From positions 1-24,138 of the IMG/VR virus record IMGVR_UViG_3300025133_000585: a DNA stretch of 24,138 nt; one strand, written 5' to 3'. Below are positions 5,372 to 24,138 of this stretch, piece after piece; positions within the stretch are counted from its first letter, which is position 1; each line of letters opens with the position of its first letter. A program made the position numbers and the translations under genes. This stretch comes from a virus. The notes beneath the pieces were generated by a model that was not told where the DNA came from, made no database searches, and saw nothing but the letters and a program-made list of their open reading frames with translations.

Positions 5372-7546
5372 ATGGCGATCACACCAGAAACACCAGGCGG
5401 TATTAACCCGCCTAATGATTTATCAAGCGAAGCAGCTAGCAGCGTAGCAGCGCCTAACACTTTATCAAGTGAAAGCGTGGCTAGCGTAGCAGCACCAAAC
5501 ACGCTAACAAGTGAAAGCGCGGCTAGCATAGCAGCACCAAATACTTTATCAAGTGAAGCGGTGGTTAGCGTGGCAGCGCCTAACACTTTATCAAGTGAAA
5601 GCGCTGGCGCGGTGGCAGCACCAAATACTTTAACTAGCGAAAGCGCGGCTAGCATAGCAGCACCAAACACGCTAACAAGTGAGTCAGCGGCTAGTGTGGC
5701 AGCACCAAACACTTTAACAAGCGAAACAGCGGTTAGTGTTGCAGCACCAAATACTATTGGCGCAGTAGCGGCAGCGGCTTTGCCTCGGACACTAACGCCG
5801 ATGTTAAAGCTTAATTTTGCACATGATAGTTACCAGCAAAACGGTACGGCTAAAAGCTTGCTAGATATTGTCACTTACTCAAGAGCGTCAAGCGCAACAT
5901 TTATTAATAGACAGTTGAACCAATACGGTCAATACGAATATTTTGTCGATACTGACTACGTGGGCGATGTTGAAAATTTACTGACTTATTCAGAGCAGTT
6001 TGATAATGCAGCTTGGGTTAAAACGGGGAATATTACAACGGAGAAACAAAGTTTTAAAGCGCCGTGCGGCTCTGATGTTTATTTGGTTAATGATAAAGAT
6101 ACTACAAACGACAACGGAAAAATAAATCAAACATTGTCGGTAGCTAATGACCAAGTAACAAGGGCGTTTAGTATGGAGCTAAAAAAGGGCAATAGAGATA
6201 CAGTATCTCTATATGCTTTTTATACTGGTGGTGCAACGGTCACAACTCCTATTACTGTCAATCTGTCAACGGGGGCAGTGATTTATGGCGAGGGAACTGT
6301 CGTTCCAGTCGGCGATGGATGGTACAGAGTAACAATATTGAGTACTAACAACCTATCAGGTAATACGAGCGCACAAGTTAGATTATATCCCGGTACGACG
6401 GCGGCTTCTGAAACGGGAAATGTTTATGCATCAAAAGCACAGTTTACAGAGTCAACAAAAGCTTTGCCGTATGTTAAAACGATTGACGCGCCAGCGACAA
6501 AAGCATTTACTGAAACGGTGCGCCGCGAGTATGACCCAGAAACGGGCGAAAACTTAGGCGCATTAATTGAGGGCGGCAGTACTAATCTGCTAACGAGATC
6601 AGAACAGTTTGATAATTCAGCGTGGGTTAAATCAAGCACAACAGTAACAGCCAACGCGACGAAAGCACCAGACGGAACAATGAGCGCGGATAAATTAACC
6701 CCTTTGGGTAGCGTTTCTTACGGTGTTTACCAAACACCAACAGTAACAAGCGGTCAAGAACATACTTTTAGTGCATACTTTAAAAATATTGATAGTGCGC
6801 AAACGCTTTTTCGTGGGTTAACTACTAATAAATATGTATATATAAACTGGACAGGCAACACGATCACGTCATTAAGCGGTATGACCAGCGGCACAACAGC
6901 GAGCTATAAAAAAGTAGGTGATTTTTACAGAGTTGATCTAACTTTTACAACAGCAAGCACGACCGAGCAATGTATTATTTATCCTGACAGAGCAAACGGC
7001 ACAGGATCGGTTTACGCTTGGGGCGCACAGCTTGAGCAAAAACCATTTGCCACAAGCTATATTCGCACAGAGGGCGCGGCGGTTAGTCGTTCGGCTGATG
7101 TTTTGAGTGTTGATAACTTTTCGTTACCAAGTGAAGGCAGCGCATCGGTAACCGCTGATTATATCGGGGGATCTGATTTAGCGCCTACTTACAGAAACGC
7201 CATGTCTATAGATGACGGAACAAGCGCAAACAGGATGCAATTTTATAACGGCGCAGGACAACCAAACTATGTATATATATCAGCAGGAGGCACAGCGCAA
7301 GCGAGTATATCAACAGGCGCAGCGACAGATCAAGCGACAACAGCAACGCTGACATTTAAGCCTAATGATTTTGTTTTATATCGTGACGGGGCGCAAGTCG
7401 GTACAGGTACAAGCGGTTTAATACCTGTTACAACTAAAATCAATATAGGGTCGGCGTTTAATGGCGCATTCCAACTATTCGGCCATATAGCAGAATTCAG
7501 CACATACAACACAGCGTTAACAGCTCAGGAGGTATCATTATTATGA
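5372..7546 (+). CDS. Tail fibre / receptor-binding protein with 14-residue repeats and LamG-like end
   Basis: The 724-aa product has three visible parts. Residues about 13-130 are eight tandem 14-residue units of the form AAPNTL(S/T)SE(S/A)xxSV. Residues about 140-570 hold two related modules, each opening with a conserved asparagine-leucine motif: ENLLTYSEQFDNAAWVK near 199 and TNLLTRSEQFDNSAWVK near 403. The second is preceded by RREYDPETGENLGALIEGG. These motifs recur in phage fibres and have a jelly-roll, carbohydrate-binding look. The last part (about 576-724) is a strand-rich LamG/concanavalin-like domain ending in FQLFGHIAEFSTYNTALTAQEV. It likely binds host surface sugars. The gene is unusual in sitting between the tape measure and the tip genes. 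Function is inferred from motifs and context. Confidence 0.72.
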   Translation: MAITPETPGGINPPNDLSSEAASSVAAPNTLSSESVASVAAPNTLTSESAASIAAPNTLSSEAVVSVAAPNTLSSESAGAVAAPNTLTSESAASIAAPNTLTSESAASVAAPNTLTSETAVSVAAPNTIGAVAAAALPRTLTPMLKLNFAHDSYQQNGTAKSLLDIVTYSRASSATFINRQLNQYGQYEYFVDTDYVGDVENLLTYSEQFDNAAWVKTGNITTEKQSFKAPCGSDVYLVNDKDTTNDNGKINQTLSVANDQVTRAFSMELKKGNRDTVSLYAFYTGGATVTTPITVNLSTGAVIYGEGTVVPVGDGWYRVTILSTNNLSGNTSAQVRLYPGTTAASETGNVYASKAQFTESTKALPYVKTIDAPATKAFTETVRREYDPETGENLGALIEGGSTNLLTRSEQFDNSAWVKSSTTVTANATKAPDGTMSADKLTPLGSVSYGVYQTPTVTSGQEHTFSAYFKNIDSAQTLFRGLTTNKYVYINWTGNTITSLSGMTSGTTASYKKVGDFYRVDLTFTTASTTEQCIIYPDRANGTGSVYAWGAQLEQKPFATSYIRTEGAAVSRSADVLSVDNFSLPSEGSASVTADYIGGSDLAPTYRNAMSIDDGTSANRMQFYNGAGQPNYVYISAGGTAQASISTGAATDQATTATLTFKPNDFVLYRDGAQVGTGTSGLIPVTTKINIGSAFNGAFQLFGHIAEFSTYNTALTAQEVSLL
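5411..5758 (+). repeat. 42-bp in-frame tandem repeat in fibre gene (8 units)
   Basis: Eight degenerate 42-bp units each encode 14 residues with a conserved P-N-(T/D)-L-(S/T)-S-E core. The proline codons fall every 14 residues from residue 14 to 126, where the ninth, partial unit breaks off at PNTIGAV. Unit-to-unit variation is mostly at third bases and at three variable residues, so the array has been shuffled or has diverged after expansion. It probably forms a repeated rod or capsid/tail anchoring segment. Confidence 0.85.
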
Positions 7547-11356: not shown

Positions 11357-11540
11357 ACTCATAATTTAATAAATACTCATCTTCTAGCGCTTTTTGCTCT
11401 TTTAATATTTCAATTTTACGCCGACTTTCTGAGCGGATTATTTTTTGCTCTTTTTCGTTTTTCTTAAGCGCGGTCTTAAGCATAACTTCTCGATCAATTT
11501 CGCGCTGTAAATATTTATTAATTCGTTCTTGTGTTGTCAT
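11355..11540 (-). CDS. Small charged helical hypothetical protein
   Basis: The 61-aa product is almost all charged residues in one long helix ([21 protein letters not shown] and on), with a predicted coiled-coil appearance. A ribosome site AAGGAG lies 10 bases before its ATG, inside the 3' end of the upstream methyltransferase, which it overlaps by 23 bases. The overlap and good SD support a real coupled gene. No family is recognised. Confidence 0.55.
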
Positions 11541-12177
11541 TGTTTATACGCTCCTTAGCAATATTAAAATAGTTTTCGTCTAACTCTATACCGATAAAAT
11601 TACGGTTTAAGTTTTTAGCGGCAACGCCTGTTGAACCACTACCCATGAAAGGATCAAGTATTGTTTGCGCTTCATTACTGAACTTTTCTAACAAGTACTG
11701 CAGTAAAGCTACTGGCTTTTGTGTTGGGTGTAATTTATTGCCAGTTCGATTAAACTTTAAAATATTAGGGTCGCGCTTACCGTTTATAAATCTACGTCCT
11801 TTCTGTATAAAAATAATCATCTCATACTTTGGCGCAAAGTCAGCTTTTAAATCACCCATGCTAGTGTTGTTCTTTTCCCATACAAGCACATTCTTTATTT
11901 TAAATTTTTGCTCTAGTGCTTGTTTGAATTTATCAATATTATGAAAGCTACAAAAAACATAATGCGCTGTATTGTCTGCAGCAACTCTAAACAACTCATT
12001 TACCCAAACATCAAGCCAACTTAAATCTTTGTCGTTTTTTATCTTGCTGTATTTCTCTTTTCTATGGTTACTCTGAAACTCCATACCATAAGGAGGATCA
12101 GTTAAAATCATATCAATAGATCCGCTTTCTATTTCTTTCATTCGTTCCAAGCAATCACCTTGTATTAAGTTAATCAT
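11518..12177 (-). CDS. Beta-class DNA amino-methyltransferase (N6-adenine or N4-cytosine)
   Basis: The 219-aa protein transfers a methyl group from S-adenosylmethionine to an exocyclic amino group of DNA. Motif IV DPPY is at residues 27-30. The AdoMet-binding FxGxG motif is near the C-terminus ([10 protein letters not shown], residues 175-184), preceded by HPTQKP at about 150-155. This order, catalytic motif before AdoMet motif, is the beta class of the N6_N4_Mtase family. The short middle gives a small target-recognition region. No restriction enzyme is encoded beside it, so it is an orphan and probably shields phage DNA from host restriction. The base methylated and the site cannot be read from sequence. 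Its start follows the upstream winged-helix gene, whose stop lies in the shared AAGGAATAA ribosome site. Confidence 0.9.
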
Positions 12178-12180
12178 TGT

Positions 12181-12483
12181 TTATTCCTTAACTGCTTTTA
12201 TATATAAAGTTTTAGATCGTCCATTCTTTACGCGTTTTGTAATTACTTTTCGCTTACACTCCAGTAATGCCACAGTGCGCTGAACAGTCGCGCGGCCGTA
12301 ACTTGTTTTGTCGACTATAAGTTTTATAGTAATAAAACCGCTGTAGCTACTAATCACTTTTAACACAGTATCAAGAGCTAATTGGCTGACATTACCTGCT
12401 AGCGGTTTGGCCCTTACTTTTCGACTAGCTGGTATATGATTTGTATTAGTATATATTTTTTTTATTGTTTCCGCTGTTAGCAT
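12181..12483 (-). CDS. Winged-helix DNA-binding-like protein
   Basis: The protein of about 100 aa has a winged-helix look: a helix (QLALDTVLKVISSYSG), then ITIKLIVDKTSYGRATVQRTVALLE as a possible turn and recognition helix, then a basic wing (KRKVITKRVKNGRSKTLYIK). The reading frame extends upstream to 12528, but that would overlap the cytosine methyltransferase by 52 bases. The ATG at 12481-12483 has AGGGGT 5-10 bases upstream and overlaps the methyltransferase stop closely (ATGCTAA), so it is preferred. It may be a local regulator or replication accessory. No closer family is recognised. Confidence 0.6.
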   Translation of the reverse strand: MLTAETIKKIYTNTNHIPASRKVRAKPLAGNVSQLALDTVLKVISSYSGFITIKLIVDKTSYGRATVQRTVALLECKRKVITKRVKNGRSKTLYIKAVKE

Positions 12484-13595
12484 TTTGTTACCCCTTTTAA
12501 AATATGTTTGATAACTTCCATCGTCCAAGCATTGCCCGTCATTTTGTAAAGCTGTGTGTTGCTGATACCAGCGTTTAACAGTGTGTTAATATGGCTTTCT
12601 GGCACTGTTTGGAGTCTCATACACTCGCGCGGTGTTAGTTTTCTTATTCTGTAATCCGTATCTAGTATTGTTTCAAAAAAACTTCTTGCGGCAGTTAGGC
12701 AGTTTGCTTTTTTGTGGCTGTGTGACTTATACATTTTTGATTTGTTGCACCTAGCGCTAGTATCTCTCCCTTTTGCGCGACTAAGCTCCTTCCTTAGTTG
12801 TTTGCCTAGCTCCGTTCTTGTTTCGTAGAAAGAGAATGGCGGCTTGGTTGACAAGTTGACCTCGATATCTTTAACTCCGTCCTGTTTTATTATCAAAAAA
12901 TTACCATTCCATGATGCGAATTGACGGGTGGTCATTGTTATAGCCTTATCATTAAAATTAGTTATACAGCTATATGACTTTAAAACCTGCTTGTCTATAT
13001 TATTAAAAAACCATTTATGCCAGTTGTCAGATTGATTCTCAAAATCTGGGTTCAACTCAATAATATCTTTGAGCAAAATACCTTTATCTTCAGGCTGTTC
13101 AACTTTAAAATTTGTCCAGTAATATCTATTGCGATTTTGAGCAGATACTAGGGCGCTATTAATTAAAATTTTATGAACATGACCAAGTGCATTTTCAGTG
13201 TGGGTTGTAATATACTGCTCGAATTCTTTTTTCATTTTTACGTTTTCAATCATAAAGTGCGCTTTCGGGTTGTGATGTTTAACATGCTTCATAATGTCTA
13301 GCATGACCCAGAACAGCATCCCGCGCTCGTCTTTGTCGCCTAACTGTTTGCCAGCCATTGACCAAGCTTGGCAAGGAAAGCCGCCAGTTACTAAGTCAAT
13401 ACTTGACCAATCGATACCCCATTCGCGCCATTTTGTAACATCGCCCATACTAATAGTGTTAGGGTATAGCGCGTTTGTCGCCTGGTTGGCGTACTTGTCG
13501 ATCTCACTACTGTAATAATTATTAACATTAATGTTTAGCGATTCCAGCGCCATGTGGCCTACAGACATCCCATTGAATAAACTTAATACATTCAT
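12477..13595 (-). CDS. DNA cytosine-5 methyltransferase
   Basis: This 372-aa protein methylates carbon 5 of cytosine in DNA. Motif I is LSLFNGMSVG (residues 4-13). The catalytic motif IV GGFPCQAWSMAG holds Cys75, motif VI is ENV (117-119), motif VIII is QNRNRYYW (153-160), motif IX is RKLTPRECMRLQ (318-329) and motif X is TGNAW (353-357). The spacing between VIII and IX is the variable target-recognition region. Motif X has W where GNS/A-V is usual, and the wider motifs resemble the phage/DNMT3-like subgroup; that last point is from memory. No cognate endonuclease is nearby. With the amino-methyltransferase it suggests anti-restriction, and the two may protect different sites. The recognition site is not readable. 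Confidence 0.92.
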   Translation of the reverse strand: MNVLSLFNGMSVGHMALESLNINVNNYYSSEIDKYANQATNALYPNTISMGDVTKWREWGIDWSSIDLVTGGFPCQAWSMAGKQLGDKDERGMLFWVMLDIMKHVKHHNPKAHFMIENVKMKKEFEQYITTHTENALGHVHKILINSALVSAQNRNRYYWTNFKVEQPEDKGILLKDIIELNPDFENQSDNWHKWFFNNIDKQVLKSYSCITNFNDKAITMTTRQFASWNGNFLIIKQDGVKDIEVNLSTKPPFSFYETRTELGKQLRKELSRAKGRDTSARCNKSKMYKSHSHKKANCLTAARSFFETILDTDYRIRKLTPRECMRLQTVPESHINTLLNAGISNTQLYKMTGNAWTMEVIKHILKGVTKC

Positions 13596-14410: not shown

Positions 14411-15163
14411 TTAAATTTCACAGATGCGGCAACCGTGGTTGCTTTCATCCCAACGCTGGCCGATTTTGGCAGTAAATACGCTTTTGTTAATTTCTTTTTC
14501 AATGATCTTTACGTCTATTAGTTGTTTTTTGCCGAAGTCATCATGTTCAAAGGCTTTTATTTTCCATTTGTCGCCCGATGCTAGACAGGGAAAACAACCA
14601 ACGCGATCAAAACCTTGATCATATAAAGGGTTGTGTTCGCCGCTCAGCAGCTCCATTACCTCGCTTGTGGTCCAATCTACAATAGGGAGGCGATACCTCA
14701 CGCCATTTTTGCCTAGATATTGAGGGTATTTTTTAAGTACTTCATGGGGTAAATATAATTCATCAGGATCTTTATAAGCGTAACGCTTTGATCGCTCTGA
14801 GCTTTCATCCGTTCGCATACCATACCAGACTTGCACAGGGCCGTTTTTCTCGGAATACTCTTTTAAAAAAATACGTGTTTCTCTAATTTTTAGTTCGTCG
14901 GTACAGTGCCTAGCCCCACCGCCTGGGAATCTTTTGTACTTTCGTGTTTTTTCCAGTACGCTGCCGCCGCATACGGTGTACATATCAACACTATAGATAT
15001 TAGATATTTTCTTAATGTGTTCGTATGTTAGCGGGTGTTCGTATTTTGTATCACAAAATAAACCTAATACATTTTCAGGGCCAAACTTCTTAACGGCTAA
15101 TTTCATGCAAGCTTGGCTGTCTTTGCCACCGCTAATAGGTACTATACAATTTACTTTTTTCAT
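14411..15163 (-). CDS. PP-loop ATPase, PAPS-reductase-like (possible DNA sulfur or assimilation enzyme)
   Basis: The 250-aa protein carries the PP-loop SGGKDS at residues 11-16 and the paired FCDTKYEHP region. Cysteines are at 87 (RHCTDELKI), 190 and 193 (GCFPC), and 245 and 248 (GCRIC). PP-loop enzymes activate a substrate through adenylation. PAPS reductases of the CysH group and DndC, which makes phosphorothioate DNA, share this fold, and DndC also has a cluster-binding cysteine set. The Cys pairs suggest an iron-sulfur or zinc site. The family member is not certain: assimilatory sulfur handling, base modification and DNA sulfuration are all possible. It sits upstream of two DNA methyltransferases in the same operon, which favours a DNA-modification role by context only. 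QueC-type 7-deazaguanine enzymes look less likely because the C-terminal zinc motif differs. Confidence 0.75.
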   Translation of the reverse strand: MKKVNCIVPISGGKDSQACMKLAVKKFGPENVLGLFCDTKYEHPLTYEHIKKISNIYSVDMYTVCGGSVLEKTRKYKRFPGGGARHCTDELKIRETRIFLKEYSEKNGPVQVWYGMRTDESSERSKRYAYKDPDELYLPHEVLKKYPQYLGKNGVRYRLPIVDWTTSEVMELLSGEHNPLYDQGFDRVGCFPCLASGDKWKIKAFEHDDFGKKQLIDVKIIEKEINKSVFTAKIGQRWDESNHGCRICEI

Positions 15164-19020: not shown

Positions 19021-19538
19021 AAGCCGATATCATCATCAAAATCGATGCTCATTGGTGCAGCTTGCTGTTGTTGCTGTTGCTGCTGTTGTGGTTGGCTCGC
19101 AGCGTTTAACGGGCTAACAGCTTTGATCCAGTTGCCCTTTTTATCGTTGATTTCCCAGATCGCAACAACTACAGCCATTGGCTTATTCGTTAGGTTCAAA
19201 CCAAGTGCCATATCATCGGGCATCACGCCATTTGCTAAAAGTTTACCGCCTGCGTTGCTGTCAATAGCAGCGAGCATTGTTTTAGCCTTGTCTGCTTTTG
19301 TCGTGTTGTCATCTAGTACGCGTACTTTTTGGAAGATCTTGCGGCTTTTATATTCGCCGTCAATAACCATCCAACGGAGCGAGATATAACGATCGCCGTC
19401 GTATTCATCCCATTTAGCTTCATCAATAAGCACTTTTAATTGTGTATTGTTAGGGATTGGCTCAAAGTCGCCGCCGCCTAGATCGAATGATTGGTTAGTT
19501 TGGATCGCTTGGTTGTCGCTAGTAGTGAAAAAGTTCAT
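19017..19538 (-). CDS. DUF669 SSB-like protein with poly-Q linker and acidic tip
   Basis: The 173-aa protein matches the DUF669 phage family. The N-terminal domain has LKVLIDEAKWDEYDGDRYIS and RKIFQKVRVLDDN. The C-terminus has nine consecutive glutamines (151-159) and then SIDFDDDIGF, nearly the acidic tip of bacterial SSB (DFDDDIPF). Family members sit beside Sak4-like genes and are taken as phage single-strand binding proteins. The tip suggests that it recruits partner proteins as SSB does. It is translated after the Sak4 gene, with AGGAT before the ATG formed partly from that gene's last codons. Confidence 0.8.
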   Translation of the reverse strand: MNFFTTSDNQAIQTNQSFDLGGGDFEPIPNNTQLKVLIDEAKWDEYDGDRYISLRWMVIDGEYKSRKIFQKVRVLDDNTTKADKAKTMLAAIDSNAGGKLLANGVMPDDMALGLNLTNKPMAVVVAIWEINDKKGNWIKAVSPLNAASQPQQQQQQQQQAAPMSIDFDDDIGF

Positions 19539-23221: not shown

Positions 23222-23398
23222 ATGCTAGATAAATTAATTGAACACTTCGGAAGTCGTAAAGCTTTATATGAAGCACTTGGAGTATCGCGCCAAGCTTTGT
23301 TCCAATACGAACAACAAGGTTATTTGCCAGCGGCCAGGGCGATTGAGATCGAGACAATCACAAAGGGAAAATTTAAAGCTAAAGATATTTGTAAATAA
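23222..23398 (+). CDS. Cro-like repressor
   Basis: The 58-aa protein has the Cro/YdaS-type pattern LIEHFGSRKALYEALGVSRQ (5-24), then ALFQYEQQGYLPAARAIEIE and a TKGKFKAKDI end. Cro proteins of lambda- and P22-type phages have this 'fG.kaalA.aLGvsrqAvsqW...iP..RA.eIe.lT.GkfkasdL' layout. It binds operators as a dimer. AGGAG lies 8 bases before the ATG. No CI-type repressor or integrase was seen, so lysogeny cannot be judged from this window. Confidence 0.85.
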   Translation: MLDKLIEHFGSRKALYEALGVSRQALFQYEQQGYLPAARAIEIETITKGKFKAKDICK

Positions 23399-23402
23399 AT
23401 GC

Positions 23403-23431
23403 TTGACAATAAAATCAATAAAAAGTAAATT
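23403..23431 (+). promoter_or_regulatory. Rightward sigma70-type promoter
   Basis: TTGACA (23403-23408), a 17-bp spacer and TAAATT (23426-23431) lie 31 bases before the first alanine-rich gene. Spacing and -35 match the consensus. It should drive that gene and those following. It shares both hexamers with the leftward promoter at 15457-15485. Confidence 0.7.
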
Positions 23432-23461: not shown

Positions 23462-23752
23462 ATGAACAAACATATTTTATTAGTCATGAAATGGTTAGAC
23501 GATAAAGATTCAGTTAGTCAAGAAGAGTTAGAAGAGAATAAGCGTATTTCTGTCGCTGCTTATTGGGCTGATGCTGCTGACGCTTATGCTGCTTGTGCTG
23601 CTGCTGATGCTGCTTATGCTGCTGATTATGCCGCTTGTGCTGCTGATTATGCCGCTTGTGCTGCCGCTGATTATGCGGCTTATTGGGTCAATAAGTATTT
23701 TAAAGAAACTGGCGAAGATAAAAACGAATATGTAAAGGAGTTAGAGAAATGA
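23462..23752 (+). CDS. Alanine-rich repeat protein, paralogue 1
   Basis: The 96-aa protein has a conserved head (NKHILLVMKWLDDKDSVSQ, then EELEENKR) and tail (ETGEDKNEYVKELEK). Between them is a low-complexity helix of Ala, Asp, Tyr and Cys built on the heptad ADYAACA. The DNA of the centre holds an exact 21-bp tandem duplication at 23621-23662. The second gene downstream has the same ends and a different centre. Such proteins look like variable phage accessory proteins; I do not recognise a function. AAGGAA lies about 9 bases before the ATG, and AAGGAG in its last codons serves the next gene. Confidence 0.75.
   Translation: MNKHILLVMKWLDDKDSVSQEELEENKRISVAAYWADAADAYAACAAADAAYAADYAACAADYAACAAADYAAYWVNKYFKETGEDKNEYVKELEK
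23621..23662 (+). repeat. Exact 21-bp tandem duplication in alanine-rich gene
   Basis: The segments 23621-23641 and 23642-23662 are identical and encode two copies of the heptad ADYAACA. The repeat unit contains only GCN, GAT, TAT and TGT codons, so it can expand or contract by slippage without a frameshift. Confidence 0.95.
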
Positions 23753-24018
23753 ACAAACATATATTATTAGTCATGAAATGGTTAGACAATAAAGATTCAG
23801 TTAGCCAAGATGAGTTAGAGGAAAACAAACGCGAGGCTTGGGCTGTTTGGGCTGCTAATGCTGCTAATGCTAATGCTGCTGATGTTGATTGGGCGGCTGA
23901 TGTTGCTTGGGCTGCTGATGCTGCTGATGCTGCTGCTGCTGCTAATTATTGGATTGATGAGTATTTTATAGAAACTGGCGAAGATAAAAACGAATATTTA
24001 AAGGAGATAAACAAATGA
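23749..24018 (+). CDS. Alanine-rich repeat protein, paralogue 2
   Basis: The 89-aa protein has the same head (NKHILLVMKWLDNKDSVSQ) and tail (ETGEDKNEYLKEINK) as the upstream gene, while the centre has Ala with Asn, Asp, Val and Trp (WAADVAWAADAADAA). The 5' ends of the two genes differ at only a few bases over about 84. It overlaps the upstream stop by four bases (ATGA). Its AAGGAG codons for Lys-Glu act as the ribosome site for the next gene. The two genes must come from a duplication. Confidence 0.75.
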   Translation: MNKHILLVMKWLDNKDSVSQDELEENKREAWAVWAANAANANAADVDWAADVAWAADAADAAAAANYWIDEYFIETGEDKNEYLKEINK

Positions 24019-24138
24019 ATACAATGAAATTATATACGGCAGAATGGTGTGGCCCTTGCAAGGGGATTAAACAATGGCTAGCTACACAATCATATGATAT
24101 TGAGTATGTAGATATAGATAAGCTAGAAGAGCGCCCTG
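24015..24138 (+). CDS. Thioredoxin/glutaredoxin-like protein (3' end outside window)
   Basis: The gene starts with ATG 24015, four bases before the upstream stop ends (ATGA), and runs past the window edge. The first 41 codons give MNTMKLYTAEWCGPCKGIKQ and YDIEYVDIDKLEERP. The WCGPC motif is the redox site of thioredoxins, and the context (beta strand, CxxC, then a helix, then IEYVDID) fits a small thioredoxin or glutaredoxin fold. It may supply electrons for ribonucleotide reduction or replace host thioredoxin. A start at M4 (24024) is also possible. Confidence 0.85.
   Translation, partial: MNTMKLYTAEWCGPCKGIKQWLATQSYDIEYVDIDKLEERP

What the first reader, a model, noticed from the sequence alone, without database searches (positions are those of the whole stretch)
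23462..24018. Tandem alanine-rich proteins with changing centres
Two neighbouring genes keep the same first about 28 and last about 15 residues but have different Ala-rich, heptad-like cores. One core has an exact 21-bp duplication, which shows recent growth. The cores can change in frame by slippage or uneven recombination, a simple way to make diversity. Alanine-rich amphipathic helices could be coiled coils, membrane-active, or inhibitor proteins. The function is unknown and the genes are expressed from a consensus promoter, so an early host-takeover or anti-defence role is possible.
Basis: partly seen in the sequence, partly recalled or inferred. Interest (0 to 1): 0.62.

Follow-up and report, generated by a model that had tools for sequence, protein, structure and literature searches.

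The report
Phage proteins with remodelled alanine-rich cores
Two neighbouring phage genes make small helical proteins whose ends stay fixed while their alanine-rich middles, written in a repetitive and easily copied run of codons, are lengthened, shortened and rewritten; many phages carry such proteins, but nobody yet knows what they do.

Summary
Two ATGA-overlapping genes (23462-23752, 23749-24018) share 26/28 N-terminal and 12/15 C-terminal residues around different Ala-rich cores. One core holds an exact 21-bp tandem duplication (23621, 23642), more repeat than codon shuffles give (p=0.007). Relatives were found in 20 other IMG/VR contigs from unlike phages. In every full-length relative both ends stay in frame while core length runs from 23 to about 100 residues. 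Core Ala codons are 92% GCT (314/343), against 25-60% in neighbouring genes, as expected of an array grown by in-frame duplication. Against a close relative, the primase side is 87% identical in DNA but the Ala-rich genes only 69%, with many gaps. Two near-identical sibling contigs differ by one Ala codon. AlphaFold predicts a compact five-helix bundle (pLDDT 91), not an extended coiled coil. The same array type is common in phages, often in Imm5_like 'putative immunity' proteins, where tandem copies have 97-100% identical N-terminal DNA and rebuilt arrays. The window genes look like a stripped-down relative of that class, but membership is not proven (no Pfam cutoff met). Function is inferred only: best guess, a binder or inhibitor with an adjustable helical hairpin. 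Neutral array drift is the main rival.

The parts
23403..23431 (+). Sigma-70-like promoter TTGACA-17-TAAATT upstream of the cassette
   Evidence: Scan; same -35 hexamer and spacing 59-61 bases before the start codon in L003 and L004
23462..23752 (+). Ala-array protein 1 (W1, 96 aa, pI 4.4)
   Evidence: ORF; AlphaFold five-helix bundle pLDDT 91, pTM 0.83
23462..23545 (+). N-cap of W1: helix-turn-helix start leading into the core
   Evidence: 26/28 identical to W2; conserved in about 20 other contigs
23546..23683 (+). Ala-rich core of W1: 22 of 26 Ala codons are GCT
   Evidence: Codon test p=8e-10; core predicted as parts of helices 20-43, 48-65 and 69-83
23621..23662 (+). Exact 21-bp tandem duplication (7 residues, about two helical turns)
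23684..23752 (+). C-cap of W1; carries the AAAGGAG ribosome site of the next gene
23749..24018 (+). Ala-array protein 2 (W2, 89 aa, pI 4.2), ATGA overlap with W1
   Evidence: ORF
23833..23949 (+). Ala-rich core of W2: 20 of 21 Ala codons are GCT
   Evidence: Codon test p=4e-11
24015..24138 (+). Glutaredoxin/thioredoxin-like gene (cut by the contig end), ATGA overlap with W2, probably same operon
   Evidence: Pfam Glutaredoxin E 2.2e-6
23222..23398 (+). Cro/YdaS-like DNA-binding protein upstream (context)
   Evidence: Pfam P22_Cro 5e-12, YdaS 8e-11

Best explanation
The pair are tandem copies of a small phage accessory protein with a fixed frame and an expandable middle. The N-cap and C-cap hold a predicted five-helix bundle. 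Between them lies an in-frame codon array (GCT GCT NNT and variants, an interrupted CTG.CAG-type repeat) that encodes the Ala-rich central helices. Replication slippage and unequal exchange within or between copies add, remove and shuffle array units in multiples of three, changing helix length and moving Tyr, Asp, Trp and Cys side chains without losing the frame (array turnover shown by comparison; slippage as the agent is inferred). Most likely the helical surface binds a host or rival protein, as immunity proteins and phage inhibitors do, and array turnover retunes that binding (inferred, about 30%).
For: Ends conserved and in frame in all full-length relatives, with cores of 23 to about 100 residues. 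GCT makes up 314/343 core Ala codons against 25-60% in neighbouring genes. Exact in-frame repeats beyond codon shuffles at offsets of 21 (W1), 66 (L009), 60 (L062a), 15 (L007) and 12 bp (L010). L005 and L006 are identical around the gene except one array codon and one synonymous array base. Window versus L003: 87% DNA identity up to the promoter, 69% with 57 gaps in the Ala genes. Tandem copies in the wider class have N-terminal DNA 283/285, 299/309 and 108/108 identical, with arrays of 97/56, 71/146 and 64/93 residues. Two AlphaFold models with different core lengths both give five helices (pLDDT 91 and 82).
Against: No functional evidence at all; no toxin or defence partner seen beside the genes; no match in PADLOC and no fold match in PDB or BFVD. 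Array homogeneity can arise neutrally. W2's core shows no excess repeat, and dS between the caps of W1 and W2 (about 1) says the gene duplication itself is not recent.
Confidence: 0.6

Rival explanations
1. Neutral array drift: the core is a low-constraint helical spacer, and slippage changes it without selection for variety.
For: Arrays keep mainly Ala with loosely placed aromatics and acids; acid spacing shows no pattern and heptad spacing is absent. Very different cores keep the same caps.
Against: Spacing 2 is depleted and spacing 3 enriched (z -5.5, 5.5), so helicity is kept; the arrays persist across unlike phages instead of collapsing.
Confidence: 0.35
2. Divergent immunity-protein relative: the genes are stripped-down Imm5_like proteins that neutralise a toxin or a toxin-like defence protein.
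For: The N-cap aligns to the segment just before the array of Imm5_like-type phage proteins (hhalign prob 79%, P 1.6e-5; with Ala residues trimmed prob 21%, P 0.001, above all 60 column shuffles). Same array type and same tandem habit.
Against: No member of the window family matches PF21805 or PF14423 even at relaxed E; the N-terminal domain of Imm5_like is missing; no toxin gene seen nearby.
Confidence: 0.3
3. Acidic DNA mimic that blocks restriction enzymes.
For: Net charge about -9 and -11, pI 4.2-4.4.
Against: The L005/L006 core has almost no acidic residues (2 of 37-38) and acids show no regular spacing across the family.
Confidence: 0.08
4. Extended coiled coil or membrane-active helix.
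For: High Ala content, helical periodicity.
Against: Confident compact bundle; no i+7 enrichment; the proteins are acidic.
Confidence: 0.08
5. Assembly or sequencing artefact in a repeat.
For: Repeats are prone to misassembly.
Against: Same architecture in about 20 other contigs and, for the Imm5_like class, in isolate phages; ends always in frame.
Confidence: 0.03

Closest known systems
Imm5_like (PF21805) and Imm5 (PF14423) putative immunity proteins, including phage copies in PHROGs 18326, 38757 and 21347
   Same: Helix-loop-helix with a T/S-x-E-E-L motif leading directly into an in-frame Ala-rich array; short helical tail after it; tandem copies with changed arrays
   Different: The window proteins lack the roughly 60-100-residue N-terminal part, have their own C-cap (YWVNKYF..TGEDK..Y), and show no match to either model. 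Imm5 was described as mostly alpha and paired with DYW deaminase and CdiAC toxins (PMC3482391)
PHROG 3483 / 7798 (phage proteins of unknown function)
   Same: L005, L006, L010, L017 and L018 fuse the same Ala-array module to this C-terminal domain
   Different: The isolate phage members checked share only the C-terminal domain, not the Ala array; the window proteins lack that domain
Contingency loci / in-frame tandem repeat proteins (general knowledge)
   Same: Repeat tract inside a gene that changes length, plausibly by slippage
   Different: Not on/off switching: units of three bases keep the frame, and the tract encodes packed helices of a bundle

Membership tests
Imm5_like (PF21805) | Score above the curated Pfam cutoff | tested here: not met
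   No PF21805 match for W1, W2 or their relatives at E up to 1-10; larger phage array proteins do meet it
Imm5_like (PF21805) | Pre-array helix-loop-helix with T/S-x-E-E-L running into the Ala-rich part | tested here: inconclusive
   hhalign prob 79% with Ala residues, 21% without; collinear placement at the array boundary in 24 of 45 other array proteins
Imm5_like (PF21805) | N-terminal domain before the array | tested here: not met
   W1 and W2 start at the N-cap
Imm5_like (PF21805) | Neutralises a neighbouring toxin | not testable with these tools
   No toxin gene seen; the contig ends 120 bases downstream
PHROG 3483/7798 | C-terminal W[DN]GEGLPP.G.ECE domain | tested here: not met
   Absent from W1 and W2; present in several fused relatives
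Coiled-coil protein | Heptad repeat, extended helix | tested here: not met
   No i+7 enrichment; compact bundle predicted
Diversity-generating retroelement target | Reverse transcriptase and template repeat; A-to-N substitutions | tested here: inconclusive
   No reverse transcriptase among the window proteins scanned, but the contig is a fragment; the variation seen is by in-frame repeat units

The most novel reading that the evidence does not exclude
Phages across many lineages use in-frame codon arrays as a general way to keep one helical scaffold changing fast, making a hypervariable class of binding or immunity-like proteins in which array turnover is selected because it lets the phage follow changing host or rival targets.
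Probability: 0.25. Interest if true: 0.78.

Novelty: new variant of a known kind. Interest (0 to 1): 0.5.

Why it matters
Hypervariable phage genes usually mark a contest with the host or with rivals. Here the variable part is a codon array inside a fixed protein frame, it is common in phage contigs, and a specific candidate parent class (Imm5_like) can be named, so both the mutation process and the binding idea can be tested directly. It also suggests why such proteins are overlooked: low-complexity filters hide them, and protein searches of 50,697 phage records with the window proteins found no relative.

Tried and rejected
tblastn against INPHARED phages with full, trimmed and cap-only queries found nothing useful, probably in part because of low-complexity masking. 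Both GTDB scans found no relative. Pfam, PHROGs, NCBIfam and PADLOC gave only chance-level hits for W1/W2. Foldseek gave no significant match. An RNA element: no Rfam match. Literature searches found no description of this family. The DNA-mimic and coiled-coil ideas were tested and set aside. A DNA-level hairpin role was considered: core strands fold somewhat better than shuffles (z -1.3 to -3.8), which fits slippage-prone CTG-type repeats but does not show a separate function. A primase relative (L066) shows no Ala-array gene in the 1.1 kb held downstream, which fits an accessory gene.

Full report
Setting. The window is a whole 24,138-base IMG/VR record. Its gene content (tape measure, tail fibre, helicase, YqaJ exonuclease, AAA ATPase, PrimPol primase) and its primase, 45% identical to Vibrio phage pYD21-A and 43% to Pseudoalteromonas phage H103, place it near marine siphovirus-like phages (inferred). 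The Ala-rich genes lie between a Cro/YdaS-like regulator and a glutaredoxin gene at the contig's end.

Observation. Two genes of 96 and 89 codons overlap by ATGA. Their first 28 residues are 26/28 identical and the last 15 are 12/15 identical, around different Ala-rich cores. The 21-bp duplication is exact and lies at 23621 and 23642. The 27-bp longest repeat in that core exceeds codon shuffles (p=0.007), while W2's core shows no excess. The N-cap is constrained as protein: dS about 1.0 against dN 0.03. The C-cap shows few synonymous changes between W1 and W2 (pS 0.10, on about ten sites), possibly partly because it contains the AAAGGAG ribosome site of the next gene, seen in W1, W2 and L003 and as AAAGGA in L004.

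Family. Relatives were found by conserved cap peptides and by a DNA pattern of the array: 20 further contigs, from phages with a T7-type RNA polymerase (L009), with GroEL or GroES/PhoH-like genes (L062, L021), and with terminase or tail neighbours (L005, L006, L008) (neighbour names read from the sequences). Tandem copies recur (window, L003, L014, L021, L062), and truncated N-cap remnants follow full copies in L007 and L014. Some relatives carry an extra C-terminal domain of PHROG 3483/7798. No relative was found in GTDB genomes.

How the core changes. In 20 members, 314 of 343 core Ala codons are GCT, although neighbouring genes on the same contigs use GCT for 25-60% of Ala. These 20 members were found through their caps, not through the array, so this is not a search artefact. 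Selection for alanine alone would not fix one codon; growth by copying does. In the window, core codons end in T 85% of the time against 29% elsewhere. Several cores hold exact repeats beyond shuffles at offsets divisible by three: 21 bp in W1, 66 in L009, 60 in L062a, 15 in L007, 12 in L010. L005 and L006, near-identical siblings, differ by one inserted codon and one synonymous base, both in the array. Against L003, DNA identity is 87% over the primase, regulator and promoter and falls to 69% with 57 gaps over the Ala genes. GCT repeats are CTG.CAG repeats, known to be prone to slippage (general knowledge); the cores fold as single strands somewhat better than shuffles. Slippage or unequal exchange as the agent is inferred.

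Wider class. Most hits are larger proteins; five of ten tested pass the Pfam cutoff for Imm5_like. Tandem copies in this wider class show the same habit more sharply: in L145, L112 and L137 the N-terminal DNA is 283/285, 299/309 and 108/108 identical while the arrays are 97/56, 71/146 and 64/93 residues long. Isolate phages PPpW-3, AF and Bcep176 have arrays of this type written only in GCC and GCA, and P26059A mainly in GCT, so the codon is lineage-specific while homogeneity is general. The window family's N-cap aligns just before the array of these proteins (hhalign prob 79%; 21% without Ala residues, but above all 60 shuffles). I treat this as a probable but unproven relationship: no window-family member matches the Pfam model and the N-terminal domain is absent.

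Structure and function. AlphaFold gives W1 five helices at pLDDT 91, pTM 0.83 and L009, with a longer core, five helices at pLDDT 82, pTM 0.75. The array therefore probably builds packed central helices, not a free coiled coil. No fold match was significant. Function is inferred. A binding or inhibitory role fits small size, tandem copies, accessory placement and the resemblance to putative immunity proteins; I give that specific role about 30%. Neutral drift of a tolerant helical spacer remains the main alternative.

Verdict. Observation confirmed; array turnover well supported by comparison; biological role open. Known kind (Ala-rich Imm5_like-type arrays), new variant (a minimal family with its own caps and documented array turnover).

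Noticed in passing
window 5419-5755 (gene 5372-7546): The tail protein's N-terminus holds an in-frame 42-bp repeat (about 8 copies): a second repeat-built coding region in the same phage.
   Followed up: no
window 11518-12177 and 12477-13595: Two DNA methyltransferases (N6/N4 type and C5-cytosine type) near each other, plus a PAPS-reductase-like gene at 14411-15163.
   Followed up: no
window 19062-19089: CAA/CAG-type repeat giving a Gln run near the end of a DUF669 protein.
   Followed up: no
L112, L137, L145: Tandem copies of Imm5_like-type proteins with nearly identical N-terminal DNA and completely different Ala arrays.
   Followed up: partly
L003:3000-3188: A small protein ends in an N-cap-like segment (SILTVMKYLNNPDSVNLEELKEL), so the N-cap can occur without an array.
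   Followed up: partly
L003:3702-4426: Another pair of tandem duplicated small genes (MKTIEHK...) right after the Ala-array pair.
   Followed up: no
L004: The promoter plus Ala-array gene sits beside head-tail genes instead of the primase, so the cassette appears to move between sites.
   Followed up: partly
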